Part shown: piece by piece, positions 13,671 to 41,287 of the stretch
Position numbering within the stretch: the first letter of the stretch is position 1
Layout of the letters: the number at the start of each line of letters is the position of its first letter
Translations under genes and position numbers: made by a program
The notes under the pieces: generated by a model
What the model was told of the DNA's origin: nothing
Seen by the model: only the letters and a program-made list of their open reading frames with translations
Database searches by the model: none
Assembly (NCBI GenBank): GCA_003194525.1
Contig: NBIV01000202.1
Location: forward strand, 87,089-151,088
DNA from: Gracilariopsis chorda
Taxonomy: Eukaryota; Rhodophyta; Florideophyceae; Gracilariales; Gracilariaceae
Direction of reading: 5' to 3'
Length of the DNA: 64,000 bases

Positions 13671-14495
13671 TGTTGATGCTACCACATGGTCGAGTGCTTG
13701 GTAGTCCTGGGACATCATGGTGTAGCACTTGGAAACAAAGTTTCATATAACGGAGGGCTGTTTTTGAGAGCTGCTTTGCAACAGCGCATATGCATGTGTT
13801 CTCAAACCCAACCTGAAACGGTCATATGATTGGCTACTGCATATAATCATATGCAATGCATTGGTTACAAGTGTTGTGCATCCTATGGATCGTGGGCATG
13901 GAACTGGCCACTTGGCATAAGGTGAATGGGCATGGTACTTAGGAATATGTGTGGCTACACCTGGTTTTACAGATACATGCAGGTGTTGCATATGTGCAGT
14001 TGTGCGAGTAAGCACGTGCCATGCACGCAACAAACTTAGAGTATGTACATGGATGCGGTGGCATGTGAATTTTTGCTTTTTCATCTCATGATGATGCAAG
14101 TAAGTGTGTACAGAGTGCTGTCACATGCTGGCACATTTTTGGCATGAGTGCTGTACTTGGTGCGCATTGTTGGCTGTTTGTTTTACTTGGTCTGCGTTGT
14201 TGTAATGTAGTGTTATGTTGTTAAGCATGGTTGTACTTAGCTGTAATCAGTGCGTGCAACCTTTATTGTGTTATGTTGGATTGTGATTGGTAGTATTGGG
14301 TGTCCCCACTTAGTGGTGTAGGGTTTTCTTTTAGTGGTAGTGCGAAGCAGAGGTTCTATATAAGACTCTGAAGTCGCAGTACCAAGTAAACTCGCCCCAA
14401 AGCCTGGGAACCTTCACTCTTTATCTTCTTTCTTTCTTTCCTTTTCATTTCTGTCGAAGCCCAACATCATCTATCAACATCATTTCATATCAACA
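13671..14495 (+). repeat. Family A 3' LTR, best-preserved copy
   Basis: 825 bases from TGTTGATGCTACC to TCATATCAACA, with TGTTGA/TCAACA inverted ends. It follows a GAGGAGGAA purine run that would serve as polypurine tract. Contains the U3 module (about 13789-13863: GCGCATATGC, AACCCAACCTGAAA, GATTGGCTACTGCA), a TATA box TATATAAG at 14357-14364 and, about 30 bases later, CCAAGTAAACT, a motif also placed after the TATA box of families B and C. A TTCTTTC-rich stretch precedes the end. This copy is a useful reference for the family. Confidence 0.85.
14357..14364 (+). promoter_or_regulatory. TATA box of family A LTR
   Basis: TATATAAG, followed about 30 bases downstream by CCAAGTAAACTCG. The same pairing of TATA-like box and AGTAAA motif is seen in family C (34055-34060 and CGAGTAAACTGG) and, on the minus strand, in family B LTRs. 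Inferred transcription start region. Confidence 0.6.
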
Positions 14496-15350
14496 TGTGG
14501 TATGGCACTGGAAAAGTCTTCCATCGTACCTCCCGACAGTTGTGATATGGACACCTATGCCGATAGTGGTGCTACATCACACTTTTTCCATTCGGTGTCT
14601 GCGTTTATTCCCGAGTCTTTGCACAACGTAGAAACTCGAACCATCATGCTTGCCGGCAATACTGAAGTATGTACAACGCAGCGGGGTGACATAGTATTGC
14701 CATTTGAGTACGCAAACCTACGATTGACTGATGTCCTGTTCGTTCCAGAACTGGAATACAATTTGGTGTCCATAGGATGCTTGGCGGACAAGGGCATTGA
14801 ATCTTTCTTTCGCTCAAGTGAAGTTCGTCTCACCTTGGGCAATGGGTTTGTAGTCGGCAGTGGCCACCGCGATCGACGCTCGGGGTTGTACACCTTACCC
14901 GATCCGATATTGCAAGGTACCAACCCAACCCCATTCTCGTCACCAACTAGTGGAGATCATTGCATGAAGACATCGGAGTCCATTATTGCTAATCTATGGC
15001 ATCGGCGACTTGCCCACATCAATGCGCGCGACCTCCAGTCAGTTTACAAACATGCTGAAGGGGTGCCGAAGATGTCAGGAATGGAGGAGATATGCCGCCC
15101 GTGTATGCTTGGTAAGGCGCATAAACTTCCGTTCCCTGGCAAATACGACCGAGCATCAGCCGTAGGTGAGGTGGTACACTCCGATATACTAGGACCCCTT
15201 GTACCTTCATTCCCACAAAGGTTTCAATATGCCTCTACCTTCCTTGACGAGCATTCAAGGTATGCACTCTTAGGCTTCATGACCCATAAAAGTGAAATTG
15301 CTGTTGTATTCGATGCAATTGAGCACAAGTTCCAGCAGCTTGGATGAGTG
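14496..15350 (+). pseudogene. Partial copy 0: protease/integrase N-terminus, family C
   Basis: Open from MALEKSS (14502) to a TGA at 15345-15347. Encodes the protease (DTYADSGATSHFF), the HHCC pre-integrase region (LWHRRLAH ... CRPCMLGK) and the first catalytic Asp of integrase (VHSDILGP). The pol sequence ends at GAGTG (15346-15350), where a LTR begins with TGTTGG; the stop arises from one G-to-T change just before. Unlike the unit copies it has Arg, not a stop, in VETRTIM. It abuts the family A LTR at 14495 with no visible target duplication. Confidence 0.85.
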
Positions 15351-15789
15351 TGTTGGAAAAGTACCTGTTCTGTCACTGAAAACCAAATGTGCCGGGGAGC
15401 ATGGGCTGTGTTGGAGGGTGCCGCTGCAAAAGCGCATATGCGTCGCTGTGCAAATTCAACGTGAATCTGGATTGTGATTGACTACTGCAAATACGCATAT
15501 GCACTGTAGTGCGTACAAGTGGTAGTACACAAGTGGGTTAGATTGGCACACCCACGTGTCCAGCTAGTACAGTGCGCACAGTGTACAGGGCACGTACCTA
15601 TGATAGATGGACACACCGCACATGTGGTACAGAAGTGGTACCTTGGTGAGGAGTATGGGCACTGGTATCAGGTTTACCGGTACAACAAGTGGAAAATGAC
15701 GTGTCAGTTGATGCAGTTACACGTACAAGTGATGTGGTGAATTACTGTGACGTGCATGGATGAATTTGGATGCGTTGGCATGCGTTGGC
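15351..15789 (+). repeat. Truncated B-like LTR (B2), unit 1
   Basis: Starts TGTTGGAAAAGTACC, related to the family B start TGTTGGCAGTAGTACC, and carries the same module (GCGCATATGCG, CAACGTGAAT, GATTGACTACTGCA, CATATGCA at about 15432-15515), but is clearly diverged from the B LTR that follows. It lies in pol right after GAGTG, consistent with an insertion there. Its 3' half is missing, replaced by the inverted B LTR. Equivalent positions in the other units are 3,907, 7,814 and 11,721 bases further on. Confidence 0.75.
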
Positions 15790-16585
15790 TATTGAAAGTT
15801 GGTAAGGAAGTTGAGGGGATGGAAGGGAAGTTCGCCAGCTCTAGCTTGGATTTACTTGGAGGTCCTTCAGGCATATCTTATATACCACTCTAAACTCGAA
15901 TTGCGCGGGAACACCAACTACAAGTAAAACCTAAACCACTAAGCAGGGACACTCAATACTACCAATCATCATCTAACATGACATAGCCAGCTCAGCACAA
16001 CCTCATTACATCAACGCACACCAACGCACTAACGTTCCGTAATAGTTACGTGCATACACATGACCATGACAAGGCACAAATTCACGACTCCAACACACGC
16101 CAGCACATGCCAACACATCACGGCAAGTCAACACATCACGGTAAGTCGGCACGTAACCTGTGGTGTTAGCGCCATGTCATCAAGTGGCAATGCATCAAGT
16201 GGCAATGCACACAACACCCACGTCATCAATATACCCGTGCATGTGTAAACCTGTTGACAGTGCATGCGCACCTTACCATTGTACCAACCACTGCTGTACC
16301 ACTTGTACCAGGTGTCAACCACTTCACCAGTATCCCCTGCACACAACGTACACTGTGACTACTGTAATAGCTGGACACGTGGGTGTGTCCAACCGATCCA
16401 GTTATGCCATACCACTTGTACGCACCACGTTGCATATGTACATGTGCAGTACCCAATCAGAAGCCAGTTTCACGTTGGGTTCGCGCACACGCGCATATGC
16501 GCTTTTGCAGAGGTACCCTCCAAAACATCCCATGCTCCCCGGAACATTTGGTTTTCAGTGACAGCATAGGTACTACTGCCAATAC
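15790..16585 (-). repeat. Family B LTR, inverted, unit 1
   Basis: Nearly complete family B LTR on the minus strand, from about ATTGAAAGTT (the normal terminus is TGTTGAAAG) to ACTACTGCCAATA. Contains TATATAAG on the minus strand near 15879-15890 and the CATATG module near its right end (16430-16510). It has two copies of a 15-base repeat (CATCAAGTGGCAATG) at about 16185-16214, which the element at 54938-61762 lacks. With the B2 LTR to its left it forms a long imperfect inverted repeat. Confidence 0.8.
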
Positions 16586-16627
16586 CTAACCCGCGTGCGT
16601 TGCAACAGGTTATGGGCCCAGAGCGTC
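16586..16627 (+). promoter_or_regulatory. Family C LTR stub and primer binding site, unit 1
   Basis: Only the last 22 bases of the family C LTR (CTAACCCGCGTGCGTTGCAA, then CA) remain at 16586-16607. The primer site GGTTATGGGCCCAGAGCGTC follows immediately (16608-16627). Its complement matches the anticodon stem-loop half of initiator tRNA-Met, as in Drosophila copia. The LTR promoter is missing, so the units have no normal 5' LTR. Confidence 0.75.
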
Positions 16628-17394
16628 GACTGTTTGCAGACGTTGCGCTCTACTAATATCTTTTTGGATTTTACGAAGACTGGTTTTTCTTTCGCGCAGG
16701 TACGCGTTGCGTTGCAAGCGAGCGAATCTTGTGGAAGTCGAGTGGCAGTGGTGAAAGTAGGCAAAGCGTTCAGAGACACCTTCTCTGGTAAGCCGACCTG
16801 CGCCTGTTCCGATCCCTGCTTCTTTGCTTCAGTGCATAAGGAAGACCGCGCTATTTTCCGGCAAGCGACTAGAAGGGGTTAACTGGTGAAAGCTTATTGC
16901 GTCAGCTACTAGCCTCCCTTGGACGTCTCGTACGGATTGTAAAGCCCCTCCCTCTGAAGTGCGCAGAGCAGTATTGGTCGCAGAAACCGCATCTCACCTG
17001 AAGAGAGTTACCAGGGACCAGAGGATTCGGACCTCTAGGGTAGCGGGGATAGTATCTACTGCCAGTGCGCCCATCTTAAGAAGTTTTATTTGTGTCCAGG
17101 CTCGTATCAGTACGTCCTGTGAGTATATTCCGGGCGTTGAGTACCCGAAATCCGCATGAGATCGCGTACGAGACGCGTCTCGACAAGCGTAGTAGACTTG
17201 GTTACACGGTCTCCGCTGAAGTTTTCGCTGTTGAGTGTTTGAGATTCTTCTCCACTCCAGTTTTTCTGGTTCTTTGTGTAACAGAAGCCTTGAAATACCT
17301 CTTTCGGCTTCAATACATTGCGTGGATATCACTACATTTGGCATCTACATAGTTGCTTTTGTTGCTTTTCTTTGGTTCTAGTCCCGTAGGAACC
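16608..17394 (+). promoter_or_regulatory. Family C leader, unit 1
   Basis: 787 bases between primer site and gag ATG. Holds a 95-codon frame (16595-16882, GTG start, not proven to be used) that includes the 69-base segment 16748-16816, identical to family A copy E and containing CTGGTAAGC, a splice-donor-like site. The two-hairpin block common to all families is at 16995-17074. Recurs in units 2-4 and, with changes, on the minus strand at 42221-43007. Confidence 0.65.
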
Positions 17395-19254
17395 ATGTCC
17401 AACTCCGAAGTTGAAACGGAATCCACCTCTGGAATGAAAATTCCTCGTTTACATGGTAAGCGTGGTGATGATTATATTCTGTGGCGTCACCGTCTCCGTG
17501 CTGCATGCCGTATTAATGGTGTCTGGAATGTCGCAAATCTCTCTGGGGTTCAATCTACCACATATATTTTAACTCAAGACACAACTACCGCAGGTAGTGG
17601 CACTGAAATAGCAACTCCCCGTATCATTGCGAAACCATAAAAGGCTTGTGGTATCATCATCTGTGCTCTTGGTGATGCTCCATTACGCGTAGTCATGGAC
17701 GTGGATGATGATCCTGCCCGTATGTTGCAACTCTTGGATGGACTTTATGCCTCCAATAGGACTGTATCTAGAATTGCAGTGCAGACACGATTGTTCCGAA
17801 TGTCGTACAGCGGTGAGAACATGTCCAGCTATGTGGATCAATACACGGCATTCTTTGCTCAGTTAGACCGTATGGGCAAGGATGCTGCTATACCGGAGTC
17901 TCACAAGGCACCTATGCTACTTGCTTCCATTGGTCCGAACATTTCGTTGGATTCCACGGCTGCTGCACTACGTACCAAGGACATATCGGAACTGACTTGG
18001 GACTATGTGGCAACCACTTTGATCGATGAGTACAATGCTCGTCTGGTCAGTTCTTCTAGTTCTGGACGTACGCGAAGTCGAAAGAAGAACAGAAGCAAAG
18101 GTTCTGGTGGTTCACGTGTGTCCCAAAACTCCAGTCACACTCAGTTCAGGGATGGAAGTGACTCTGATGATCGGCCAAGTACAGCTGGTAGAGCATATGT
18201 GGTGTCCAGTAACCGGACTTATCACTGTGAATTTTGTGATCGTGATGGTAACACAAAGGACAGATGCCATGTGAATCCCGATAACCCGGATAATCACTTA
18301 CCCAAAAGCATCCTGGACAAGCTTAACATCAAATGGAAGAGCAAATCTGGGGCGTCCAAGTCTTGCAATAAGCCGGCTGGTAGTTCATCAAAGATTGAGG
18401 TATGTGGTATGGCACTGGAAAAGTCTTCCATCGTACCTCCCGACAGTTGTGATATGGACACCTATGCCGATAGTGGTGCTACATCACACTTTTTCCATTC
18501 GGTGTCTGCGTTTATTCCCGAGTCTTTGCACAACGTAGAAACTTGAACCATCATGTTTGCCGACAACACTGAAGTATGTACAACGCAGCGGGGTGACATA
18601 GTATTGCCATTTGAGTACGCAAACCTACGATTGACTGATGTCCTGTTCGTTCCAGAACTAGAATACAGTTTGGTGTCCATAGGATGCTTGGCGGACAAGG
18701 GCATTGAATCTTTCTTTCGCTCAACTGAAGTTCGTCTCACCTTGGACAATGGTTTTGTAGTCGGCAGTGGCCATCGCGATCGACGCTCGGTGTTGTACAC
18801 CTTACCCGATCCGATATTGCAAGGTACCAACCCAACCCCATTCTCGTCACCAACTAGTGGAGATCATTGCATGAAGACATCGGAGTCCATTATTGCTAAT
18901 CTATGGCATCGGCGACTTGCCCACATCAATGCGCGCGACCTCCAGTCAGTTTACAAACATGCTGAAGGGGTGCCGAAGATGTCAGGAATGGAGGAGATAT
19001 GCCGCCCGTGTATGCTTGGTAAGGCGCATAAACTTCCGTTCCCTGGCAAATACGACCGAGCATCAGCCGTAGGTGAGGTGGTACACTCCGATATACTAGG
19101 ACCCCTTGTACCTTCATTCCCACAAAGGTTTCAATATGCCTCTACCTTCCTTGACGAGCATTCAAGGTATGCACTCTTAGGCTTCATGACCCATAAAAGT
19201 GAAATTGCTGTTGTATTCGATGCAATTGAGCACAAGTTCCAGCAGCTTGGATGA
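17395..19254 (+). pseudogene. Family C gag-protease-integrase start, unit 1
   Basis: One frame from ATG (MSNSEVETES, CC-ATG context) to a TGA at 19252-19254, with two internal stops: TAA at 17638-17640 (where the minus-strand copy reads KREKACG) and TGA at 18544-18546 (CGA to TGA in VETRTIM). There is no frameshift. Domains: gag (about 1-250), a knuckle reading CEFCDRDGNTKDRC in which Asn replaces the zinc-binding His, protease DTYADSGATSHFF, pre-integrase HHCC, and the first integrase Asp. The same two stops in all four units show that the amplification was passive. Confidence 0.9.
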
Positions 19255-19257
19255 GTG

Positions 19258-22200
19258 TGTTGGAAAAGTACCTGTTCTGTCACTGAAAACCAAATGTGCC
19301 GGGGAGCATGGGCTGTGTTGGAGGGTGCCGCTGCAAAAGCGCATATGCGTCGCTGTGCAAATTCAACGTGAATCTGGATTGTGATTGACTACTGCAAATA
19401 CGCATATGCACTGTAGTGCGTACAAGTGGTAGTACACAAGTGGGTTAGATTGGCACACCCACGTGTCCAGCTAGTACAGTGCGCACAGTGTACAGGGCAC
19501 GTACCTATGATAGATGGACACACCGCACATGTGGTACAGAAGTGGTACCTTGGTGAGGAGTATGGGCACTGGTATCAGGTTTACCGGTACAACAAGTGGA
19601 AAATGACGTGTCAGTTGATGCAGTTACACGTACAAGTGATGTGGTGAATTACTGTGACGTGCATGGATGAATTTGGATGCGTTGGCATGCGTTGGCTATT
19701 GAAAGTTGGTAAGGAAGTTGAGGGGATGGAAGGGAAGTTCGCCAGCTCTAGCTTGGATTTACTTGGAGGTCCTTCAGGCATATCTTATATACCACTCTAA
19801 ACTCGAATTGCGCGGGAACACCAACTACAAGTAAAACCTAAACCACTAAGCAGGGACACTCAATACTACCAATCATCATCTAACATGACATAGCCAGCTC
19901 AGCACAACCTCATTACATCAACGCACACCAACGCACTAACGTTCCGTAATAGTTACGTGCATACACATGACCATGACAAGGCACAAATTCACGACTCCAA
20001 CACACGCCAGCACATGCCAACACATCACGGCAAGTCAACACATCACGGTAAGTCGGCACGTAACCTGTGGTGTTAGCGCCATGTCATCAAGTGGCAATGC
20101 ATCAAGTGGCAATGCACACAACACCCACGTCATCAATATACCCGTGCATGTGTAAACCTGTTGACAGTGCATGCGCACCTTACCATTGTACCAACCACTG
20201 CTGTACCACTTGTACCAGGTGTCAACCACTTCACCAGTATCCCCTGCACACAACGTACACTGTGACTACTGTAATAGCTGGACACGTGGGTGTGTCCAAC
20301 CGATCCAGTTATGCCATACCACTTGTACGCACCACGTTGCATATGTACATGTGCAGTACCCAATCAGAAGCCAGTTTCACGTTGGGTTCGCGCACACGCG
20401 CATATGCGCTTTTGCAGAGGTACCCTCCAAAACATCCCATGCTCCCCGGAACATTTGGTTTTCAGTGACAGCATAGGTACTACTGCCAATACCTAACCCG
20501 CGTGCGTTGCAACAGGTTATGGGCCCAGAGCGTCGACTGTTTGCAGACGTTGCGCTCTACTAATATCTTTTTGGATTTTACGAAGACTGGTTTTTCTTTC
20601 GCGCAGGTACGCGTTGCGTTGCAAGCGAGCGAATCTTGTGGAAGTCGAGTGGCAGTGGTGAAAGTAGGCAAAGCGTTCAGAGACACCTTCTCTGGTAAGC
20701 CGACCTGCGCCTGTTCCGATCCCTGCTTCTTTGCTTCAGTGCATAAGGAAGACCGCGCTATTTTCCGGCAAGCGACTAGAAGGGGTTAACTGGTGAAAGC
20801 TTATTGCGTCAGCTACTAGCCTCCCTTGGACGTCTCGTACGGATTGTAAAGCCCCTCCCTCTGAAGTGCGCAGAGCAGTATTGGTCGCAGAAACCGCATC
20901 TCACCTGAAGAGAGTTACCAGGGACCAGAGGATTCGGACCTCTAGGGTAGCGGGGATAGTATCTACTGCCAGTGCGCCCATCTTAAGAAGTTTTATTTGT
21001 GTCCAGGCTCGTATCAGTACGTCCTGTGAGTATATTCCGGGCGTTGAGTACCCGAAATCCGCATGAGATCGCGTACGAGACGCGTCTCGACAAGCGTAGT
21101 AGACTTGGTTACACGGTCTCCGCTGAAGTTTTCGCTGTTGAGTGTTTGAGATTCTTCTCCACTCCAGTTTTTCTGGTTCTTTGTGTAACAGAAGCCTTGA
21201 AATACCTCTTTCGGCTTCAATACATTGCGTGGATATCACTACATTTGGCATCTACATAGTTGCTTTTGTTGCTTTTCTTTGGTTCTAGTCCCGTAGGAAC
21301 CATGTCCAACTCCGAAGTTGAAACGGAATCCACCTCTGGAATGAAAATTCCTCGTTTACATGGTAAGCGTGGTGATGATTATATTCTGTGGCGTCACCGT
21401 CTCCGTGCTGCATGCCGTATTAATGGTGTCTGGAATGTCGCAAATCTCTCTGGGGTTCAATCTACCACATATATTTTAACTCAAGACACAACTACCGCAG
21501 GTAGTGGCACTGAAATAGCAACTCCCCGTATCATTGCGAAACCATAAAAGGCTTGTGGTATCATCATCTGTGCTCTTGGTGATGCTCCATTACGCGTAGT
21601 CATGGACGTGGATGATGATCCTGCCCGTATGTTGCAACTCTTGGATGGACTTTATGCCTCCAATAGGACTGTATCTAGAATTGCAGTGCAGACACGATTG
21701 TTCCGAATGTCGTACAGCGGTGAGAACATGTCCAGCTATGTGGATCAATACACGGCATTCTTTGCTCAGTTAGACCGTATGGGCAAGGATGCTGCTATAC
21801 CGGAGTCTCACAAGGCACCTATGCTACTTGCTTCCATTGGTCCGAACATTTCGTTGGATTCCACGGCTGCTGCACTACGTACCAAGGACATATCGGAACT
21901 GACTTGGGACTATGTGGCAACCACTTTGATCGATGAGTACAATGCTCGTCTGGTCAGTTCTTCTAGTTCTGGACGTACGCGAAGTCGAAAGAAGAACAGA
22001 AGCAAAGGTTCTGGTGGTTCACGTGTGTCCCAAAACTCCAGTCACACTCAGTTCAGGGATGGAAGTGACTCTGATGATCGGCCAAGTACAGCTGGTAGAG
22101 CATATGTGGTGTCCAGTAACCGGACTTATCACTGTGAATTTTGTGATCGTGATGGTAACACAAAGGACAGATGCCATGTGAATCCCGATAACCCGGATAA

Positions 22201-23164
22201 TCACTTACCCAAAAGCATCCTGGACAAGCTTAACATCAAATGGAAGAGCAAATCTGGGGCGTCCAAGTCTTGCAATAAGCCGGCTGGTAGTTCATCAAAG
22301 ATTGAGGTATGTGGTATGGCACTGGAAAAGTCTTCCATCGTACCTCCCGACAGTTGTGATATGGACACCTATGCCGATAGTGGTGCTACATCACACTTTT
22401 TCCATTCGGTGTCTGCGTTTATTCCCGAGTCTTTGCACAACGTAGAAACTTGAACCATCATGTTTGCCGACAACACTGAAGTATGTACAACGCAGCGGGG
22501 TGACATAGTATTGCCATTTGAGTACGCAAACCTACGATTGACTGATGTCCTGTTCGTTCCAGAACTGGAATACAGTTTGGTGTCCATAGGATGCTTGGCG
22601 GACAAGGGCATTGAATCTTTCTTTCGCTCAACTGAAGTTCGTCTCACCTTGGACAATGGTTTTGTAGTCGGCAGTGGCCATCGCGATCGACGCTCGGTGT
22701 TGTACACCTTACCCGATCCGATATTGCAAGGTACCAACCCAACCCCATTCTCGTCACCAACTAGTGGAGATCATTGCATGAAGACATCGGAGTCCATTAT
22801 TGCTAATCTATGGCATCGGCGACTTGCCCACATCAATGCGCGCGACCTCCAGTCAGTTTAAAAACATGCTGAAGGGGTGCCGAAGATGTCAGGAATGGAG
22901 GAGATATGCCGCCCGTGTATGCTTGGTAAGGCGCATAAACTTCCGTTCCCTGGCAAATACGACCGAGCATCAGCCGTAGGTGAGGTGGTACACTCCGATA
23001 TACTAGGACCCCTTGTACCTTCATTCCCACAAAGGTTTCAATATGCCTCTACCTTCCTTGACGAGCATTCAAGGTATGCACTCTTAGGCTTCATGACCCA
23101 TAAAAGTGAAATTGCTGTTGTATTCGATGCAATTGAGCACAAGTTCCAGCAGCTTGGATGAGTG
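19258..23164 (+). repeat. Array unit 2
   Basis: Same content as unit 1 (15351-19257): B2 LTR 19258-19696, inverted B LTR 19697-20492, C LTR stub and primer site to 20534, leader, and a gag-protease-integrase frame 21302-23161. The pol part has an additional stop, TAC to TAA at about 22859-22861 (QSVYKHA in other copies), which splits the frame into 22460-22861 and 22877-23161. Confidence 0.95.
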
Positions 23165-26100
23165 TGTTGGAAAAGTACCTGTTCTGTCACTGAAAACCAA
23201 ATGTGCCGGGGAGCATGGGCTGTGTTGGAGGGTGCCGCTGCAAAAGCGCATATGCGTCGCTGTGCAAATTCAACGTGAATCTGGATTGTGATTGACTACT
23301 GCAAATACGCATATGCACTGTAGTGCGTACAAGTGGTAGTACACAAGTGGGTTAGATTGGCACACCCACGTGTCCAGCTAGTACAGTGCGCACAGTGTAC
23401 AGGGCACGTACCTATGATAGATGGACACACCGCACATGTGGTACAGAAGTGGTACCTTGGTGAGGAGTATGGGCACTGGTATCAGGTTTACCGGTACAAC
23501 AAGTGGAAAATGACGTGTCAGTTGATGCAGTTACACGTACAAGTGATGTGGTGAATTACTGTGACGTGCATGGATGAATTTGGATGCGTTGGCATGCGTT
23601 GGCTATTGAAAGTTGGTAAGGAAGTTGAGGGGATGGAAGGGAAGTTCGCCAGCTCTAGCTTGGATTTACTTGGAGGTCCTTCAGGCATATCTTATATACC
23701 ACTCTAAACTCGAATTGCGCGGGAACACCAACTACAAGTAAAACCTAAACCACTAAGCAGGGACACTCAATACTACCAATCATCATCTAACATGACATAG
23801 CCAGCTCAGCACAACCTCATTACATCAACGCACACCAACGCACTAACGTTCCGTAATAGTTACGTGCATACACATGACCATGACAAGGCACAAATTCACG
23901 ACTCCAACACACGCCAGCACATGCCAACACATCACGGCAAGTCAACACATCACGGTAAGTCGGCACGTAACCTGTGGTGTTAGCGCCATGTCATCAAGTG
24001 GCAATGCATCAAGTGGCAATGCACACAACACCCACGTCATCAATATACCCGTGCATGTGTAAACCTGTTGACAGTGCATGCGCACCTTACCATTGTACCA
24101 ACCACTGCTGTACCACTTGTACCAGGTGTCAACCACTTCACCAGTATCCCCTGCACACAACGTACACTGTGACTACTGTAATAGCTGGACACGTGGGTGT
24201 GTCCAACCGATCCAGTTATGCCATACCACTTGTACGCACCACGTTGCATATGTACATGTGCAGTACCCAATCAGAAGCCAGTTTCACGTTGGGTTCGCGC
24301 ACACGCGCATATGCGCTTTTGCAGAGGTACCCTCCAAAACATCCCATGCTCCCCGGAACATTTGGTTTTCAGTGACAGCATAGGTACTACTGCCAATACC
24401 TAACCCGCGTGCGTTGCAACAGGTTATGGGCCCAGAGCGTCGACTGTTTGCAGACGTTGCGCTCTACTAATATCTTTTTGGATTTTACGAAGACTGGTTT
24501 TTCTTTCGCGCAGGTACGCGTTGCGTTGCAAGCGAGCGAATCTTGTGGAAGTCGAGTGGCAGTGGTGAAAGTAGGCAAAGCGTTCAGAGACACCTTCTCT
24601 GGTAAGCCGACCTGCGCCTGTTCCGATCCCTGCTTCTTTGCTTCAGTGCATAAGGAAGACCGCGCTATTTTCCGGCAAGCGACTAGAAGGGGTTAACTGG
24701 TGAAAGCTTATTGCGTCAGCTACTAGCCTCCCTTGGACGTCTCGTACGGATTGTAAAGCCCCTCCCTCTGAAGTGCGCAGAGCAGTATTGGTCGCAGAAA
24801 CCGCATCTCACCTGAAGAGAGTTACCAGGGACCAGAGGATTCGGACCTCTAGGGTAGCGGGGATAGTATCTACTGCCAGTGCGCCCATCTTAAGAAGTTT
24901 TATTTGTGTCCAGGCTCGTATCAGTACGTCCTGTGAGTATATTCCGGGCGTTGAGTACCCGAAATCCGCATGAGATCGCGTACGAGACGCGTCTCGACAA
25001 GCGTAGTAGACTTGGTTACACGGTCTCCGCTGAAGTTTTCGCTGTTGAGTGTTTGAGATTCTTCTCCACTCCAGTTTTTCTGGTTCTTTGTGTAACAGAA
25101 GCCTTGAAATACCTCTTTCGGCTTCAATACATTGCGTGGATATCACTACATTTGGCATCTACATAGTTGCTTTTGTTGCTTTTCTTTGGTTCTAGTCCCG
25201 TAGGAACCATGTCCAACTCCGAAGTTGAAACGGAATCCACCTCTGGAATGAAAATTCCTCGTTTACATGGTAAGCGTGGTGATGATTATATTCTGTGGCG
25301 TCACCGTCTCCGTGCTGCATGCCGTATTAATGGTGTCTGGAATGTCGCAAATCTCTCTGGGGTTCAATCTACCACATATATTTTAACTCAAGACACAACT
25401 ACCGCAGGTAGTGGCACTGAAATAGCAACTCCCCGTATCATTGCGAAACCATAAAAGGCTTGTGGTATCATCATCTGTGCTCTTGGTGATGCTCCATTAC
25501 GCGTAGTCATGGACGTGGATGATGATCCTGCCCGTATGTTGCAACTCTTGGATGGACTTTATGCCTCCAATAGGACTGTATCTAGAATTGCAGTGCAGAC
25601 ACGATTGTTCCGAATGTCGTACAGCGGTGAGAACATGTCCAGCTATGTGGATCAATACACGGCATTCTTTGCTCAGTTAGACCGTATGGGCAAGGATGCT
25701 GCTATACCGGAGTCTCACAAGGCACCTATGCTACTTGCTTCCATTGGTCCGAACATTTCGTTGGATTCCACGGCTGCTGCACTACGTACCAAGGACATAT
25801 CGGAACTGACTTGGGACTATGTGGCAACCACTTTGATCGATGAGTACAATGCTCGTCTGGTCAGTTCTTCTAGTTCTGGACGTACGCGAAGTCGAAAGAA
25901 GAACAGAAGCAAAGGTTCTGGTGGTTCACGTGTGTCCCAAAACTCCAGTCACACTCAGTTCAGGGATGGAAGTGACTCTGATGATCGGCCAAGTACAGCT
26001 GGTAGAGCATATGTGGTGTCCAGTAACCGGACTTATCACTGTGAATTTTGTGATCGTGATGGTAACACAAAGGACAGATGCCATGTGAATCCCGATAACC

Positions 26101-27071
26101 CGGATAATCACTTACCCAAAAGCATCCTGGACAAGCTTAACATCAAATGGAAGAGCAAATCTGGGGCGTCCAAGTCTTGCAATAAGCCGGCTGGTAGTTC
26201 ATCAAAGATTGAGGTATGTGGTATGGCACTGGAAAAGTCTTCCATCGTACCTCCCGACAGTTGTGATATGGACACCTATGCCGATAGTGGTGCTACATCA
26301 CACTTTTTCCATTCGGTGTCTGCGTTTATTCCCGAGTCTTTGCACAACGTAGAAACTTGAACCATCATGTTTGCCGACAACACTGAAGTATGTACAACGC
26401 AGCGGGGTGACATAGTATTGCCATTTGAGTACGCAAACCTACGATTGACTGATGTCCTGTTCGTTCCAGAACTGGAATACAGTTTGGTGTCCATAGGATG
26501 CTTGGCGGACAAGGGCATTGAATCTTTCTTTCGCTCAACTGAAGTTCGTCTCACCTTGGACAATGGTTTTGTAGTCGGCAGTGGCCATCGCGATCGACGC
26601 TCGGTGTTGTACACCTTACCCGATCCGATATTGCAAGGTACCAACCCAACCCCATTCTCGTCACCAACTAGTGGAGATCATTGCATGAAGACATCGGAGT
26701 CCATTATTGCTAATCTATGGCATCGGCGACTTGCCCACATCAATGCGCGCGACCTCCAGTCAGTTTAAAAACATGCTGAAGGGGTGCCGAAGATGTCAGG
26801 AATGGAGGAGATATGCCGCCCGTGTATGCTTGGTAAGGCGCATAAACTTCCGTTCCCTGGCAAATACGACCGAGCATCAGCCGTAGGTGAGGTGGTACAC
26901 TCCGATATACTAGGACCCCTTGTACCTTCATTCCCACAAAGGTTTCAATATGCCTCTACCTTCCTTGACGAGCATTCAAGGTATGCACTCTTAGGCTTCA
27001 TGACCCATAAAAGTGAAATTGCTGTTGTATTCGATGCAATTGAGCACAAGTTCCAGCAGCTTGGATGAGTG
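23165..27071 (+). repeat. Array unit 3
   Basis: Same content as unit 1; the gag frame starts at 25209 and the unit ends after the TGA at about 27066-27068. It carries the same extra TAA as unit 2 (26766-26768), so units 2 and 3 share a more recent common source than either does with unit 1. Confidence 0.95.
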
Positions 27072-30000
27072 TGTTGGAAAAGTACCTGTTCTGTCACTGA
27101 AAACCAAATGTGCCGGGGAGCATGGGCTGTGTTGGAGGGTGCCGCTGCAAAAGCGCATATGCGTCGCTGTGCAAATTCAACGTGAATCTGGATTGTGATT
27201 GACTACTGCAAATACGCATATGCACTGTAGTGCGTACAAGTGGTAGTACACAAGTGGGTTAGATTGGCACACCCACGTGTCCAGCTAGTACAGTGCGCAC
27301 AGTGTACAGGGCACGTACCTATGATAGATGGACACACCGCACATGTGGTACAGAAGTGGTACCTTGGTGAGGAGTATGGGTACTGGTATCAGGTTTACCG
27401 GTACAACAAGTGGAAAATGACGTGTCAGTTGATGCAGTTACACGTACAAGTGATGTGGTGAATTACTGTGACGTGCATGGATGAATTTGGATGCGTTGGC
27501 ATGCGTTGGCTATTGAAAGTTGGTAAGGAAGTTGAGGGGATGGAAGGGAAGTTCGCCAGCTCTAGCTTGGATTTACTTGGAGGTCCTTCAGGCATATCTT
27601 ATATACCACTCTAAACTCGAATTGCGCGGGAACACCAACTACAAGTAAAACCTAAACCACTAAGCAGGGACACTCAATACTACCAATTATCATCTAACAT
27701 GACATAGCCAGCTCAGCACAACCTCATTACATCAACGCACACCAACGCACTAACGTTCCGTAATAGTTACGTGCATACACATGACCATGACAAGGCACAA
27801 ATTCACGACTCCAACACACGCCAGCACATGCCAACACATCACGGCAAGTCAACACATCACGGTAAGTCGGCACGTAACCTGTGGTGTTAGCGCCATGTCA
27901 TCAAGTGGCAATGCATCAAGTGGCAATGCACACAACACCCACGTCATCAATATACCCGTGCATGTGTAAACCTGTTGACAGTGCATGCGCACCTTACCAT
28001 TGTACCAACCACTGCTGTACCACTTGTACCAGGTGTCAACCACTTCACCAGTATCCCCTGCACACAACGTACACTGTGACTACTGTAATAGCTGGACACG
28101 TGGGTGTGTCCAACCGATCCAGTTATGCCATACCACTTGTACGCACCACGTTGCATATGTACATTTGCAGTACCCAATCAGAAGCCAGTTTCACGTTGGG
28201 TTCGCGCACACGCGCATATGCGCTTTTGCAGAGGTACCCTCCAAAACATCCCATGCTCCCCGGAACATTTGGTTTTCAGTGACAGCATAGGTACTACTGC
28301 CAATACCTAACCCGCGTGCGTTGCAACAGGTTATGGGCCCAGAGCGTCGACTGTTTGCAGACGTTGCGCTCTACTAATATCTTTTTGGATTTTACGAAGA
28401 CTGGTTTTTCTTTCGCGCAGGTACGCGTTGCGTTGCAAGCGAGCGAATCTTGTGGAAGTCGAGTGGCAGTGGTGAAAGTAGGCAAAGCGTTCAGAGACAC
28501 CTTCTCTGGTAAGCCGACCTGCGCCTGTTCCGATCCCTGCTTCTTTGCTTCAGTGCATAAGGAAGACCGCGCTATTTTCCGGCAAGCGACTAGAAGGGGT
28601 TAACTGGTGAAAGCTTATTGCGTCAGCTACTAGCCTCCCTTGGACGTCTCGTACGGATTGTAAAGCCCCTCCCTCTGAAGTGCGCAGAGCAGTATTGGTC
28701 GCAGAAACCGCATCTCACCTGAAGAGAGTTACCAGGGACCAGAGGATTCGGACCTCTAGGGTAGCGGGGATAGTATCTACTGCCAGTGCGCCCATCTTAA
28801 GAAGTTTTATTTGTGTCCAGGCTCGTATCAGTACGTCCTGTGAGTATATTCCGGGCGTTGAGTACCCGAAATCCGCATGAGATCGCGTACGAGACGCGTC
28901 TCGACAAGCGTAGTAGACTTGGTTACACGGTCTCCGCTGAAGTTTTCGCTGTTGAGTGTTTGAGATTCTTCTCCACTCCAGTTTTTCTGGTTCTTTGTGT
29001 AACAGAAGCCTTGAAATACCTCTTTCGGCTTCAATACATTGCGTGGATATCACTACATTTGGCATCTACATAGTTGCTTTTGTTGCTTTTCTTTGGTTCT
29101 AGTCCCGTAGGAACCATGTCCAACTCCGAAGTTGAAACGGAATCCACCTCTGGAATGAAAATTCCTCGTTTACATGGTAAGCGTGGTGATGATTATATTC
29201 TGTGGCGTCACCGTCTCCGTGCTGCATGCCGTATTAATGGTGTCTGGAATGTCGCAAATCTCTCTGGGGTTCAATCTACCACATATATTTTAACTCAAGA
29301 CACAACTACCGCAGGTAGTGGCACTGAAATAGCAACTCCCCGTATCATTGCGAAACCATAAAAGGCTTGTGGTATCATCATCTGTGCTCTTGGTGATGCT
29401 CCATTACGCGTAGTCATGGACGTGGATGATGATCCTGCCCGTATGTTGCAACTCTTGGATGGACTTTATGCCTCCAATAGGACTGTATCTAGAATTGCAG
29501 TGCAGACACGATTGTTCCGAATGTCGTACAGCGGTGAGAACATGTCCAGCTATGTGGATCAATACACGGCATTCTTTGCTCAGTTAGACCGTATGGGCAA
29601 GGATGCTGCTATACCGGAGTCTCACAAGGCACCTATGCTACTTGCTTCCATTGGTCCGAACAGTTCGTTGGATTCCACGGCTGCTGCACTACGTACCAAG
29701 GACATATCGGAACTGACTTGGGACTATGTGGCAACCACTTTGATCGATGAGTACAATGCTCGTCTGGTCAGTTCTTCTAGTTCTGGACGTACGCGAAGTC
29801 GAAAGAAGAACAGAAGCAAAGGTTCTGGTGGTTCACGTGTGTCCCAAAACTCCAGTCACACTCAGTTCAGGGATGGAAGTGACTCTGATGATCGGCCAAG
29901 TACAGCTGGTAGAGCATATGTGGTGTCCAGTAACCGGACTTATCACTGTGAATTTTGTGATCGTGATGGTAACACAAAGGACAGATGCCATGTGAATCCC

Positions 30001-30978
30001 GATAACCCGGATAATCACTTACCCAAAAGCATCCTGGACAAGCTTAACATCAAATGGAAGAGCAAATCTGGGGCGTCCAAGTCTTGCAATAAGCCGGCTG
30101 GTAGTTCATCAAAGATTGAGGTATGTGGTATGGCACTGGAAAAGTCTTCCATCGTACCTCCCGACAGTTGTGATATGGACACCTATGCCGATAGTGGTGC
30201 TACATCACACTTTTTCCATTCGGTGTCTGCGTTTATTCCCGAGTCTTTGCACAACGTAGAAACTTGAACCATCATGTTTGCCGACAACACTGAAGTATGT
30301 ACAACGCAGCGGGGTGACATAGTATTGCCATTTGAGTACGCAAACCTACGATTGACTGATGTCCTGTTCGTTCCAGAACTGGAATACAGTTTGGTGTCCA
30401 TAGGATGCTTGGCGGACAAGGGCATTGAATCTTTCTTTCGCTCAAGTGAAGTTCGTCTCACCTTGGACAATGGTTTTGTAGTCGGCAGTGGCCATCGCGA
30501 TCGACGCTCGGTGTTGTACACCTTACCCGATCCGATATTGCAAGGTACCAACCCAACCCCATTCTCGTCACCAACTAGTGGAGATCATTGCATGAAGACA
30601 TCGGAGTCCAGTATTGCTAATCTATGGCATCGGCGACTTGCCCACATCAATGCGTGCGACCTCCAGTCAGTTTACAAACATGCTGAAGGGGTGCCGAAGA
30701 TGTCGGGAATGGAGGAGATATGCCGCCCGTGTATGCTTGGTAAGGCGCATAAACTTCCGTTCCCTGGAAAATACGACCGAGCATCAGCCGTAGGTGTGGT
30801 GGTACACTCCGATATACTAGGACCCCTTGTACCTTCATTCCCACAAAGGTTTCAGTATGCCTCTACCTTCCTTGACGAGCATTCAAGGTATGCACTCTTA
30901 GGTTTCATGACCCATAAAAGTGAAATTGCTGTTGTATTCGATGCAGTTGAGCACAAGTTCCAACAGCTTGGAGGAGTG
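27072..30978 (+). repeat. Array unit 4, fused to full family C element
   Basis: Same B2 LTR, inverted B LTR, stub and leader, but with several differences from units 1-3: TACTGG for CACTGG at about 27380, AATTATC for AATCATC near 27687, ACATTTGCAG for ACATGTGCAG near 28163, and AACAGTTCG for AACATTTCG near 29660. The last two match independent copies elsewhere in the window, so unit 4 keeps the older state. Its pol part lacks the interruption at GAGTG and continues into the rest of pol. Confidence 0.9.
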
Positions 30979-33465
30979 GCCATTGCGAAAGTGCACTCGG
31001 ATAATGCCCAGGAGTGTATTGCGTTGCAGTTGAACCCTGCCAACAGTCTTGAAGACACTTCTTTCTCTCCTCCGTATACTCCGGAACACAATGCAATAGC
31101 CGAGCGCATCAATCGCACTATGGAGGAAGCTGCTCGAGCTTTGCTCATACAGGCAAGTCTCCCAGAGTGCTTGTGGCCATACGAATTAAAGCACGTCATA
31201 CATGTTCCCAATAGGGTTTATCACTCAGCCACTGGAAGCAGCCCTTACCTTTTGATGACTGGTTCAAAACCATCCCTGAAGCATGTCAAAGTGTTTGGGT
31301 GTGCTGCGTTCGTGCTTAAGATGAAACCGGATACCAAGTTCGAGTCTCGTGCACTTAAGGGAGTGTACTTGCAAACTCTTGAGCATGGTGTGTATGATGT
31401 TTTAGTCAATGATAGTGATGAGATTCCACGCATTGTAAAGTCTCGGCATGTGACATTTGACGAGTCCAAGTTCCCTGGGGCACCATTTCTGGAACATGTT
31501 ATGAGTGATGAAGGTGCATCAAATGATACTTATGAATGCACAGATCACTCTGAAATCGATACTGAGAGTGGTATTATGGTTTCTGTGGACACCCAATTCG
31601 ACATTGAGAGTGATACGGAACATATTGAATCCACTCCTATACCAACGGCACAGAGCATTGAAAGCGGTACCGATCATCCAGATGATAGCGAGCATACGTC
31701 TGGTGACGATTCGGACCCAGACAATTGTGGTGAGCATGCCCCAAGTGCTAGTCAACATACTTCGGACACTGATGTCTTACCGGAATCTGAACCAGAACCA
31801 CGCTATCCTCGCCGTACACGACGTGCACCAGCTAAGTGGTGGTACATGGCCGGTAGTGCAACGTCACAAATGGATATTACTACCAGTGATGAACCTACTC
31901 TGGGCGAAGCACTGTCTGCCACACCACTTGAGCAGAGCCTTTAGAAGAGTGCCATTGATGAAGAACTGACATCTTTGGAGGAGAAGAACACTTGGGAGGA
32001 GGATGAATCACCTGCCTCTCAGCCTCTTCCTACTCATGTCATTTTAAACGTAAAGCGCGATGCCAAAGGATCGGTTGACAGACTCAAGGCTAGGGTTGTG
32101 GCTGCTGGCAATCACCAGACATTCGGGCAGAACTACATGGAGACATATGCGCCAGTAGTGCCATTTAGCCTGGTCCGCATGTTCCTGTACGTCGCACTTT
32201 GTCTTCAGATATATGTGGCCCAAGTAGATTTTAAGACTGCATTTCTCAATGGTGAGCTTAAAGAAGACGTGTGGGTGATGTCGCCGCGTGGTGTTACCGG
32301 TCTGACCACAAAGTGCTATAAGTTACTCAAGGCTATGTACGGTTTGAAACAGGCTCATCTAGCATGGCACACCAAGTTCAAAGCAGACATGAAGAGGTTG
32401 GGTTTTGAGGAACTACCCAGCGCACCGTGCGTATTCAAGCGAAAGCTTGGAGATGGCATCTATGCCTACATACTAGTATATGTGGACGACATTCTGGTGT
32501 TCACGCCAACGCTGGAGCAACGGGCTACGGTGTTGGAGGAGCTCAAAACACTCTATGACCTCCGCATTGAGAACCGAATCACTCTGTACCTTGGCGTGGA
32601 GCTGTCATGGAAGATAGGTACAGCCGTACAACTCCTTGGTGTCAAGCAGGGACAGTCGCTGTATATTGAAAGTATACTTCGAAGATTTGGTGTTCAGAAC
32701 GCTAAGCCAGTACCTAGCCCTATGGTGGAGTGCTTCTTCACATCTCTAGCAATCGAGGAGGACAGATCACCAATGGATGTGCAGTTGTACCAGCAGATTA
32801 TCGGGTCTCTGCTGTACTTGGCACTACGTACTAGGGTGGATATAGTTGCTCCAGTTCTCATCTTGGCTGGTTTTCAGAGTGCTCCTACCGCTTGATGTCA
32901 CAAAGCTGTGAAGCGTGTGCTCAGGTACCTGTGTGGAATGCAACAGCATGGGCCATGCTACAGGCCTGGGTCGCTAGATCTGCATGGTTTTGTGGACTTT
33001 GACTACGCTGGAGACACTGAGAGTCGGAAGTCGATGTCTGGGAATATCGTTACACTTGGGTCAGCAACCTGCTGGTATAGTGGTAGAAAACAAGCGTCAG
33101 TTGTGCTATCAAGTGGTGAGGCGGAGTACTATGCTCTGACTTTGGCTCCACAGGAAGTGGTATGGGTTGCTCGTGTGCTACGGGAATGCGGCATCGACAT
33201 GAAACCTTTGGTTCCTCTACACTCTGACAACCAGTGCGCATTGGAGTGGGCTGGTGGTGAAAGGTGTCCTTCTAGTCGTGCTACGCACATTGATGTAAAC
33301 GTTCACTTTATCCGAGATCTCATAAGAGACAATGTGATTAGTGTTCAATACGTCCCAAGTGAGCTGAATGATGCCGATTTACTCACCAAGCCATTGGGAC
33401 GTATGAGTGTTAAAGCAATTCTCAAACGGCTTGGTCTTGGACAGGAACTCGAGGAGGAGTGTTGA
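29116..33465 (+). pseudogene. Full-length family C gag-pol with four stops
   Basis: A single frame of 1,450 codons runs from the gag ATG to the terminal TGA without any frameshift, broken only by TAA (29359-29361), TGA (30265-30267), TAG (31942-31944) and TGA (32893-32895). Domains in order: gag, knuckle (His to Asn), protease DSGATSHF, HHCC, integrase Asp/Asp/Glu (VHSDILGP, VHSDNAQE, AIAERINRT), an acidic Ser-rich linker, RT (VDFKTAFLNGEL, YVDDILVF) and RNase H (FVDFDYAGD, SSGEAEYYAL, HSDNQCAL). The last two stops replace Trp codons. The C-terminus EEEC-TGA overlaps the 3' LTR. The catalytic motifs are otherwise kept, so the copy died recently. Confidence 0.9.
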
Positions 33466-34192
33466 AGTGTTGAACTCTACAAGTAGTCGAGTGCCCTGCC
33501 AGCCCCCACAGAAGGTGTCAGCTTGGTCCAAAACCAAAACTTCAGGGGACGATGGACACTTTTGGAGCCCCTCGCTCCAAAAGGGCATATGCGCCTCTGC
33601 TCAAACCCAACGTGAAATGGCAATGTGATTGGCTACTGCAAAATGCTATATGCATTGTATACCGTACAAGTGTTATGGAGTGTATGGTACTGGATTGCGG
33701 ATATGCACAAGTGGAGCAATGTGGTTGGTCCAAGTGTGCGCGCAGTAGACGGTTGTGCTGCAATGCCGAAGATGCGAATGGGAGCTGTATTGGGTGATTT
33801 GGGACAATGTGCGTTTGCGGGCTGCGCGGAGGGGTTGGAGTGCCAGGATGGTAATTGTTGTTTTTTTAGAGCTGGTTCCAGATCAAGGGACTGGCAATGG
33901 ATTTGCCGCATTGATTGATTTAGTTATTTGAAATTGTGACCCTCTAGATTGTGCGCGCTTTTCGTGTACACCTGCACACACGAATAACGTGTAGTGTAAT
34001 GGTGCCATAACCGCTGTCGCTTGCTGCGACGACGGTGAAGTGTGTGCGGTAGGGTATATGTAGATTGGCTTTGCCTGCTGTCGAGTAAACTGGTTGAATA
34101 AGGCTGACCACCTTCCTTGTTTTATTTTCTTGTTTCTTCTTCCTCCCGTTGTTTCTTCCCTTTTGTTTTCATAACCCGCGTGCGTTTAAACA
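33460..34192 (+). repeat. Family C 3' LTR
   Basis: 733 bases from TGTTGAAGTGTTGAACTC to CGTGCGTTTAAACA (other copies end GTTGCAACA). The pol stop codon lies inside its first bases, and a GAGGAGGAG purine run just before it would be the polypurine tract. The U3 module is at about 33577-33657 (GGCATATGCGC, AACCCAACGTGAAA, GATTGGCTACTGCA); the TATA-like box TATATG is at 34055-34060, followed by CGAGTAAACTGG. Its outer end abuts family A pol (copy E) at 34193, so it seems to have inserted there. Confidence 0.85.
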
Positions 34193-37142: not shown

Positions 37143-37875
37143 TGTGGAAACGCCTGCGGGTTATGAAAACAAAAGGGAAGAAACAACGGGAGGAAGAAGA
37201 AACAAGAAAATAAAACAAGGAAGGTTGTCAGCCTTATCCGACCAGTTTACTCGACAGCATGCAAAGCCAATCTACATATACCCTACCGCACACACTTCAC
37301 CGTCGTCGCAGCAAGCGACAGCGGTGGTTGCACCATTACACTACACGTTATTCGTGTGTGCAGGTGTACACGAAAAGCGCGCACAATCTAGAGGGTCAAG
37401 ATTTCAAATAACTAAATCAATCAATGCGGCAAATCCATTGCCAGTCCCTTGATCTGGAACCAGCTCTAAAAAATCAACAATTACCATCCTGGCACTCCAA
37501 CCCCTCCGCGCAGCCCGCAAACGCACATTGTCCCAAATCACCCAATACAGCTCCCATTCGCATCTTCGGCATTGCAGCACAACCGTCTACTTCGCGCACA
37601 CTTGGACCAACCACATTGCTCCACTTGTGCATATCCGCAATCCAGTACCATACACTCCATAACACTTGTACGGTATACAATGCATATAGCATTTTGCAGT
37701 AGCCAATCACATTGCCATTTCACGTTGGGTTTGAGCAGAGGCGCATATGCGCTTTTGGAGCGAGGGGCTCCAAAAGTGCCCATCGTCCCCTGAATGTTTG
37801 GGTTTGGACCAAGCTGACACCTTCTGTGGGGGTTGGCCAGGCACTCGACCACTTTTAGAGTTCAGCACTTCAACA
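37143..37875 (-). repeat. Family C 3' LTR
   Basis: From TGTGGAAACGCCTG (altered; the partner has TGTTGCAACGCACG) to GCACTTCAACA. Contains the CATATGCGC module near 37741-37752 and a TATA-like region near 37276. The pol stop codon falls inside its last bases. Confidence 0.85.
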
Positions 37876-40800: not shown

Positions 40801-41205
40801 CGGATCGGGTAAGATGTACAACACCGAGCGTCGATCGCGATGGCCACTGCCGACTACAAAACCATTGTCCAAGGTGAGACGAACTTCAGTTGAGCGAAAG
40901 AAAGATTCAATGCCCTTGTCAGCCAAGCATTCTATGGACACCAAATTGTATTCCAGTTCTGGAACGAACAGGACATCAGTCAATCGTAGGTTTGCGTACT
41001 CGAATGGCAATACTATGTCACCCCGCTGCGTTGCACATACTTCAGTATTGTCGGAAAGCATGATGGTTCGAGTTTCTACGTTGTGCAAAGACTCGGGAAT
41101 AAACGCAGACACCGAATGGAAAAAGTGTGATGTAGCACCACTATCGGCATAGGTGTCCATATCACAACTGTCGGGAGGTACGATGGAAGACTTTTCCAGT
41201 GCCAT
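37870..41205 (-). CDS. Family C pol: protease, integrase, RT, RNase H
   Basis: Uninterrupted frame of 1,111 codons. The aspartic protease (DSG with Asp21) would cleave the polyprotein. The integrase has HHCC (LWHRRLAH, CRPCMLGK) and Asp228, Asp291, Glu325, which insert the DNA copy. The RT has VDVKTAFLNGEL and YVDD at residues 784-787, and RNase H has FVDFDYAGD, STGEAEYYAL and HSDNQCAL. All catalytic residues I can check are present, making this the best family C pol in the window. The listed ATG (MALEK) is internal: normally the protein would be made as gag-pol from upstream, but a one-base insertion at 41301-41303 puts gag in another frame. Whether anything is translated from MALEK is unknown. 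Confidence 0.85.
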   Translation of the reverse strand: MALEKSSIVPPDSCDMDTYADSGATSHFFHSVSAFIPESLHNVETRTIMLSDNTEVCATQRGDIVLPFEYANLRLTDVLFVPELEYNLVSIECLADKGIESFFRSTEVRLTLDNGFVVGSGHRDRRSVLYILPDPILQGTNPTPSLSPNSGDHCMKTSESSIANLWHRRLAHINACDLQSVYKHAEGVPKMSGMEEICRPCMLGKAHKLPFPGKYDRASAVGEVVHSDILGPLVPSFPQRFQYASTFLDEHSRYALLGFMTHKSEIAVVFDAVEHKFQQLGGVAIAKVHSDNAQECIALQLNPANSLEDTSFSPPYTPEHNAIAERINRTMEEAARALLIQASLPECLWPYELKHVIHVPNRVYHSATGSSPYLLMTGSKPSLKHVKVFGCAAFVLKMKPDTKFESRALKGVYLQTLEHGVYDVLVNDSDEIPRIVKSRHVTFDESKFPGAPFLEHVMSDEGASNDTYECTDHSEIDTESGIMVSVDTQFDIESDTEHIESTPIPTAQSIESGTDHPDDSEHTSGDDSDPDHCGEHAPSASQHTSDTDVLPESEPEPRYLRRTRRAPAKWWYMAGSATSQIDITTSDEPTLGEALSATPLEQSLWKSAIDEELTSLEEKNTWEEDESPASQPLPTHFILNVKRDAKGSVDRFKARVVAAGNHQTYGQNYMETYAPVVPFSLVRMFLYVALCLQIYVAQVDVKTAFLNGELKEDVWAMSPRGVPGLTTKCYKLLKAMYGLKQAHLAWHTKFKADMKRLGFEELPSAPCVFKRKLGDGIYAYILVYVDDILVFTPTLEQRATVLEELKTLYDLRIENRITLYLGVELSWKIGTAVQLLGVKQGQSLYIESILRRFGLQNAKPVPSPVVECFFTSLAMEEDKSPMDVHLYQQMIGSLLYLALRTRLDILAPVLILARFQSAPTAWCHKAVKRVLRYLCGTRQHGLCYRPGSLDLHGFVDFDYAGDTTSRKSMSGYIVKLGSATCWYGGRKQASVALSTGEAEYYALTLAAQEVVLVARVLRERGFDMKPLVPLHSDNQCALEWAGGERFPSSRATHIDVNVHFIRDLIRDNVISVQYVPSELNDADLLTKPLGRMSVKAILKRLGLGQELEEEC

Positions 41206-41287
41206 ACCACATACCTCAATCTTTGATGAACTACCAGCCGGCTTACTGCAAGACTTGGACGCCCCAGATTTGCTCTTCGATTTGATG

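What the first reader, a model, noticed from the sequence alone, without database searches (positions are those of the whole stretch)
14496..30978. Near-perfect tandem array of a 3,907-bp retroelement fragment
Four units plus a partial copy repeat with an exact 3,907-base period. Each unit joins family C leader-gag-protease to two LTRs of other types, and every unit shares the same two in-frame stops and the same His-to-Asn zinc-knuckle change. Retrotransposition cannot produce this: it is DNA-level amplification of a dead composite. Such arrays can turn into satellite DNA.
Basis: seen in the sequence. Interest (0 to 1): 0.88.

Follow-up and report, generated by a model that had tools for sequence, protein, structure and literature searches.

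The report
Tandem retrotransposon array from unequal crossover
A dead piece of a jumping gene, most likely in a red alga, has been copied about four times in a row by misaligned DNA exchange between two neighbouring copies, and the spot of the first exchange can still be read; the process is a known one.

Summary
The array is real: an indel-free 3,907-bp period over window 14496-30978, in a 91.3-Mb, 1,081-contig eukaryotic assembly with phycobilisome-linker genes (most likely a red alga). The unit combines a Ty1/copia element (leader, gag, protease, pre-integrase, start of integrase) with a truncated LTR (X) and a full antisense LTR (D) of other families. Exact words across its three internal junctions occur only here.

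The partial first copy (A, 856 bp) and the same part of the last, longer element (Z) differ at 19 sites. All three middle copies carry Z's base at the first 9 and A's at the last 10. This single switch, inside a 98-bp identical stretch, is what duplicating unequal recombination between A and Z predicts; one further site does not fit. The array's ends are the limits of A-Z homology. Differences between units suggest at least three growth steps, the last giving two identical units. Z already had both stops and the His-to-Asn change, so a dead element was amplified.

Six other contigs show head-to-tail copies of these families (two read, four by spacing alone). This is a well-resolved new member of a known kind: a recombination-made tandem array, not yet a satellite. 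Copy number cannot be verified without reads.

The parts
13671..14495 (+). 3' LTR of copia-like element E (TGTTGATG...CAACA), preceded by a purine-rich tract; its right edge is the left edge of the array
14496..15350 (+). A: left, truncated copy of element C (protease to integrase start). One partner of the inferred crossover; lacks the second shared stop
14885..14982 (.). 98-bp stretch identical in A and Z in which the inferred crossover lies (by the period: 30513-30610 in Z; 18792-18889, 22699-22796 and 26606-26703 in the hybrids)
15351..15789 (+). X: first 439 bp of an LTR of another family. It begins right after GAGTG, the base run at that point of element C; truncated where D begins
15790..16584 (-). 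D: full-length antisense LTR of a third family, with TA...TA ends and no target-site duplication
16585..16607 (+). last 23 nt of element C 5' LTR
16608..18401 (+). element C leader and gag body (ATG 17395, in-frame TAA 17638, knuckle with N for H)
15351..19257 (+). unit 1 (X-D-leader-gag-protease-pre-integrase-integrase start); its last 856 bp are the first Z/A hybrid
19258..23164 (+). unit 2, identical to unit 3 over 3,907 bp; differs from unit 1 at 2 sites
23165..27071 (+). unit 3, identical to unit 2
27072..30122 (+). last X-D-leader-gag block; 4 of 3,051 sites differ from the other three blocks; ancestral base at 3 of the 4
30123..34192 (+). [not shown]
37143..43740 (-). complete copy of element C, used as outgroup: LTRs 733 bp, 96.6% alike, TGGCC on both sides; knuckle His present
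54938..64000 (-). family D element followed head-to-tail by a second one sharing the middle LTR, cut by the contig end (period 6,043-6,049)

Best explanation
[not shown]
For: A and Z differ at 19 of 856 sites. 3 of 3 middle copies read ZZZZZZZZZAAAAAAAAAA across them: one switch, in the direction that a duplicating exchange requires. Only 1 of 92,378 orders of 9 Z and 10 A looks like this. The array begins where A begins (right end of the E LTR) and ends where A ends (X insertion point). Growth in steps: blocks 1-3 share the derived base at 3 sites and block 4 has the derived base at 1; unit 1 differs from unit 2 at 2 sites; unit 2 equals unit 3. Age order: A-Z differ by 2.2%, block 1 from block 4 by 0.13%, units 2 and 3 by 0. 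D LTR is full length with different flanks (TTGGC / CCTAA) and no duplication; 16 of 16 relatives of X that were looked at run on past the point where D starts. Same process elsewhere: head-to-tail repeats of C at C993 (99.8% alike over 1,137 bp, one LTR between), element-minus-one-LTR spacing at C184 and C581; D at C582 and C468 (spacing); a 6,494-bp duplication with X-family LTRs at C101.
Against: At offset 323 all three hybrids have C while A and Z both have G, against expectation. The outgroup copy has C and another C-family copy has G, so it needs a back-mutation, a conversion tract or a family polymorphism. Step order in the growth phase rests on six sites (258, 552 and the four block-4 columns); one of the four polarities rests on 3 relatives, and at another 2 of 19 relatives disagree. 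Gene conversion after duplication can also make mosaics, and it is the route favoured by the authors for the maize CRM repeats. Read depth and read spans were not available, so the number of units, above all the identical units 2 and 3, is as assembled. The D-D recombination is inferred from one LTR with unmatched flanks. The missing left half of A was not found.
Confidence: 0.86

Rival explanations
1. Recombination between A and Z within one chromosome cut out a 3,907-bp circle carrying the Z/A hybrid; rolling-circle copies of it went back into the locus by homology.
For: Gives the same hybrid and the same ends. Circles are one of the routes that the authors of the maize CRM1TR/CRM4TR paper say they cannot exclude, next to unequal exchange; they favour gene conversion (passages of PMC3648361).
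Against: A single burst should give all inserted units alike at once. Here unit 1 differs from unit 2 at 2 sites and block 4 from the others at 4, which fits steps better; but the sites are few.
Confidence: 0.08
2. Assembly artefact: one or two true units multiplied during assembly.
For: Units 2 and 3 are identical over 3,907 bp. The last 3 kb of the contig, the second D copy, has 26 gap columns against the first, so the assembly has poor stretches.
Against: At least three kinds of middle segment are distinguishable (sites 258, 552 and the four block-4 sites). No indel in the whole array. The hybrid switch cannot come from a plain repeat of either A or Z. Exact junction words are confined to one contig.
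Confidence: 0.04
3. Product of reverse transcription: template switching or insertion of a concatemeric cDNA.
For: LTR retrotransposons can form complex cDNAs (recalled).
Against: The unit contains an antisense LTR of another family and a truncated LTR of a third, and lacks an LTR pair of its own. The 5 bases outside the two array ends, CAACA and GCCAT, do not match. The array ends match A-Z homology exactly.
Confidence: 0.02

Closest known systems
CRM1TR and CRM4TR, tandem repeats derived from maize centromeric retrotransposons (PMC3648361; 12 passages read)
   Same: Tandem repeats whose monomer is a fragment of an LTR retrotransposon; recombinant monomers are reported; gene conversion (favoured there), unequal exchange and circles are discussed as routes
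   Different: Those monomers come from the LTR-UTR of Ty3/gypsy elements; CRM1TR monomers average 696 and 819 nt at two loci, 187 full-length ones extracted. Here a 3.9-kb three-family copia composite, four units, one locus, with the founding breakpoint still readable
Cassandra tandem arrays (PMC7215508; 12 passages read) and Wukong TRIM elements in maize (PMC4528315; start of abstract in a listing)
   Same: Head-to-tail arrangements of LTR elements attributed to recombination (unequal crossing over is named in the part of the Wukong abstract seen)
   Different: Cassandra arrays are LTRs separated by internal domains; here the exchange lay in coding sequence of two nested copies. The shared-LTR form is seen elsewhere in this assembly (C993)
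Sobo satellite of potato (recalled; only counted as a word in PMC3648361, passage not seen)
   Same: From memory, a kilobase-size satellite monomer related to an LTR retrotransposon, at one locus
   Different: From memory, a much longer array; not compared by sequence here

Membership tests
Ty1/copia LTR retrotransposon (element C) | protease, integrase, then reverse transcriptase in that order | tested here: met
   37870-41205 minus: Pol_BBD 19-98, gag_pre-integrs 148-205, rve 220-297 (31.1 bits, just under its 32.6 cut-off), RVT_2 621-866; copia-type gag in the ORF before it. A D-S-G protease motif (name recalled) is readable at 14562-14570
Ty1/copia LTR retrotransposon (element C) | LTR pair with TG...CA ends and 5-bp target duplication | tested here: met
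   733-bp LTRs, TGTTGAAG...ACA, TGGCC on both sides of the copy at 37143-43740
Tandem array by unequal homologous recombination | direct homologous copies at both ends of the array, array ends equal to homology ends | tested here: met
   A and Z, 856 bp
Tandem array by unequal homologous recombination | hybrid junction copies with one switch, right-hand partner first | tested here: met
   3 of 3 middle copies, 19 of 19 diagnostic sites; one further site, 323, does not fit either parent
Tandem array by unequal homologous recombination | copy-number variation between individuals or alleles | not testable with these tools
   one assembly, no reads; exact words at the E-A junction and the three internal junctions are found at this locus only
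LTR-sharing tandem retroelement array (Cassandra type) | successive elements share an LTR, period = element minus one LTR | tested here: not met
   period 3,907 versus 5,864-5,865 for element C (6,598 minus 733; for C993); the unit has no C LTR beyond 23 nt
Satellite DNA | long arrays, many copies, often several loci | tested here: not met
   four units; exact junction words at one locus only

The most novel reading that the evidence does not exclude
In this alga, exchange between neighbouring LTR-retrotransposon copies keeps turning nested elements into head-to-tail arrays, so that unequal recombination is a main source of new tandem repeats and possibly of satellite-like DNA; the present array is a seed caught a few steps after its founding crossover.
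Probability: 0.2. Interest if true: 0.55.

Novelty: new member of a known kind. Interest (0 to 1): 0.38.

Why it matters
How satellites begin is usually argued from mature arrays whose origin has been blurred by homogenisation. Here the two founding copies, the recombinant between them and later steps of growth are all present in one 20-kb stretch, so the order of events can be read and then tested with long reads or other strains. It also shows that retroelement tandem duplications recur in one algal assembly.

Tried and rejected
Reverse-transcription origin: rejected because the unit holds an antisense LTR and a truncated LTR of other families and the array ends carry no matching flanks. LTR-LTR exchange of element C as the cause of this array: rejected because the period is not element minus LTR, although that form exists at C993. 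Left half of A: not found; only 65-71% matches and one 36-bp match of 92% in the preceding 87 kb of the contig and window 1-14495.

Naming the species: the SSU-rRNA search gave no answer in four tries. A phycobilisome-linker search gave 7 matches, all over the cut-off, on 7 contigs, and rang in 1 of 14 control genomes, a cyanobacterium. Linkers also occur in glaucophytes, but few, and the one glaucophyte genome discussed has 1.77% LTR elements against 35.6% in the red alga Gracilariopsis chorda (passages of PMC6811547 and PMC6704402). Hence most likely a red alga. Two protein searches gave no usable species name: one of 30 hits bears a transcriptome accession, one of 8 is labelled Pseudomonas sp. 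MAG002Y. That size and base composition recall Gracilariopsis is memory, not tested; one search gave no figures for it.

Literature: searches concerned red-algal genomes, retrotransposons or tandem arrays; 30, 38, 43, 45, 51 the general phenomenon. No report of this array was seen in these listings; most subscription papers are not held, and the Gracilariopsis genome paper (seen only as a reference) was not looked up. Two maize papers on recombination at duplicated loci (PMC2686159, PMC3014980) were seen in listing 51 only.

The family lists are capped: 40 candidates were scored of 600 (C), 376 (D), 682 (X-element internal) and 1,242 (X LTR), so the tally of other tandem loci is a lower bound and not a rate. 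Of the six named, only C993 and C101 were read; C184, C581, C582 and C468 rest on spacing alone. Same-strand pairs in these lists that do not fit element-minus-LTR spacing: the third match of C581 (12,692 on), C496 (19,279) and C212 (2,907 and 10,229).

Full report
OBSERVATION. The window is the right end of contig C202 (C202:87089-151088) of an unnamed eukaryotic assembly, G000, of 91.3 Mb in 1,081 contigs. Seven phycobilisome-linker matches over the family cut-off, together with many LTR elements, make it most likely a red alga. Self-comparison shows an exact, indel-free period of 3,907 bp from 14495/14496 to 30978. Over the whole array only 26 columns vary between copies. Exact words across the three internal junctions (C into X, X into D, D into C) occur 4 times each in the assembly, all here, with no hits for the patterns read backwards; the left junction E into A occurs once.

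ANATOMY. Element C is a Ty1/copia retrotransposon. The copy at 37143-43740 (minus) has 733-bp LTRs, 96.6% alike, TGGCC on both sides, a copia-type gag frame and a pol frame with beta-barrel (protease), pre-integrase, integrase and reverse-transcriptase domains in copia order. The array unit holds the last 23 nt of a C LTR, leader, gag, protease, pre-integrase and the start of integrase (the integrase match is in Z's longer frame and just under its cut-off). It then has 439 bp of the 5' end of an LTR of family X, and then a full LTR of family D in antisense. X starts right after GAGTG, the base run at that point of C, as expected for an insertion there. 16 of 16 relatives of X run on past the point where D begins, so X was cut by D. 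D is full length but its two flanks, TTGGC and CCTAA, do not match each other. I infer two D insertions joined by LTR-LTR recombination; this step rests on this one LTR.

BROKEN BEFORE COPYING. All four gag bodies carry a TAA at codon 82 and a TGA at codon 384 from the ATG at 17395, and N in place of H in the zinc knuckle; the complete copy has H. The last body belongs to Z, so these changes came before the array. The partial first copy A has CGA at the second stop. Two of four bodies have a further TAA, and three of four end in a TGA that A also has.

FOUNDING EVENT. A (14495-15350) and the same part of Z (30123-30978) differ at 19 of 856 sites. Each of the three middle copies has the Z base at the first nine and the A base at the last ten. 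The switch lies in 98 bp that are identical in A and Z. A duplicating unequal exchange between A and Z must leave just such a copy, Z on the left and A on the right. With nine Z and ten A labels, one order in 92,378 looks like this. The left end of the array is the left end of A, where E's LTR stops; the right end is the last base that A shares with Z before X. One site does not fit: at offset 323 the middle copies have C and both parents G. The outgroup copy has C and another C-family copy G, so a conversion, a back-mutation or a family polymorphism is needed.

GROWTH. The 3,051-bp X-D-leader-gag blocks 1, 2 and 3 are identical; block 4 differs at four sites. Against relatives, blocks 1-3 carry the derived base at three of these (in one case judged on 3 relatives only) and block 4 at one, where 17 of 19 relatives have the base of blocks 1-3 and 2 have that of block 4. 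Unit 1 differs from unit 2 at two sites, and units 2 and 3 are identical over 3,907 bp. The simplest history is a first duplication, a second after some substitutions had built up, and a last one too recent to show any. A-Z divergence is 2.2%, block 1 to block 4 0.13%. No clock is available, so no years are given.

NOT UNIQUE IN THIS ASSEMBLY. Among the 40 scored matches to the C leader (4 in this array, 1 at 37-44 kb, 35 others), three contigs (C184, C581, C993) hold same-strand pairs 5,863-5,864 bp apart, that is, element minus one LTR. C993 was read: internal region, one LTR, internal region again, 99.8% alike over the 1,137 bp that could be compared. Among 40 scored D matches, C582 and C468 hold pairs 6,044 and 6,043 bp apart, as does the contig end in this window. 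C101 holds a 6,494-bp duplication, 99.5% alike over 7,275 bp, with X-family LTRs. Pairs with other spacings exist too (C581, C496, C212). The lists are capped, so this shows recurrence, not a rate.

ARTEFACT? The middle segments are of at least three kinds by their differences, there is no indel, and a hybrid copy is not what a repeated assembly of one parent would give. The unit count, above all the pair of identical units, still needs reads.

COMPARISON. Arrays made from LTR-retrotransposon fragments are known: CRM1TR and CRM4TR of maize, whose authors favour gene conversion and do not exclude unequal exchange or circles (passages of PMC3648361), Cassandra arrays (passages of PMC7215508) and Wukong (listing only). 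The present array differs in that the exchange lay inside coding sequence of two nested copies, that three families are joined in one unit, and that the founding crossover is still visible. It is not a satellite by copy number or spread. Verdict: a clear new member of a known kind.

Noticed in passing
window 54938-64000: Two family-D copia elements head to tail sharing the middle LTR, period 6,043-6,049, cut by the contig end; the second copy has 26 gap columns against the first in about 3 kb, as in poorly polished long-read sequence.
   Followed up: partly
L034 and L035 (C101:262001-282000): A 6,494-bp tandem duplication carrying X-family LTRs, 99.5% alike over 7,275 bp.
   Followed up: partly
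L047 (C993:6001-13000): Element C internal region, one LTR, then the internal region again, 99.8% alike over 1,137 bp: an LTR-sharing tandem.
   Followed up: yes
window 15790-16584 and its three repeats: The D LTR in the array has TA...TA ends where the three other D LTRs looked at begin TG and end CA; whether this is mutation or a subfamily is not known.
   Followed up: no
window offset 323 of the overlap (14818, 18725, 22632, 26539, 30446): All three hybrids have C although both parents have G; the one site that the simple exchange does not explain.
   Followed up: partly
window 48090-49538 minus: 482-aa open frame with a DDE_Tnp_4 endonuclease domain, a DNA-transposon-type nuclease among the copia elements.
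   Followed up: no
window 4163-5385 and 12032-13250 (inverted); 5399-6684 and 6689-7946 (direct): Older repeated element fragments, 82-86% alike, left of the array.
   Followed up: no
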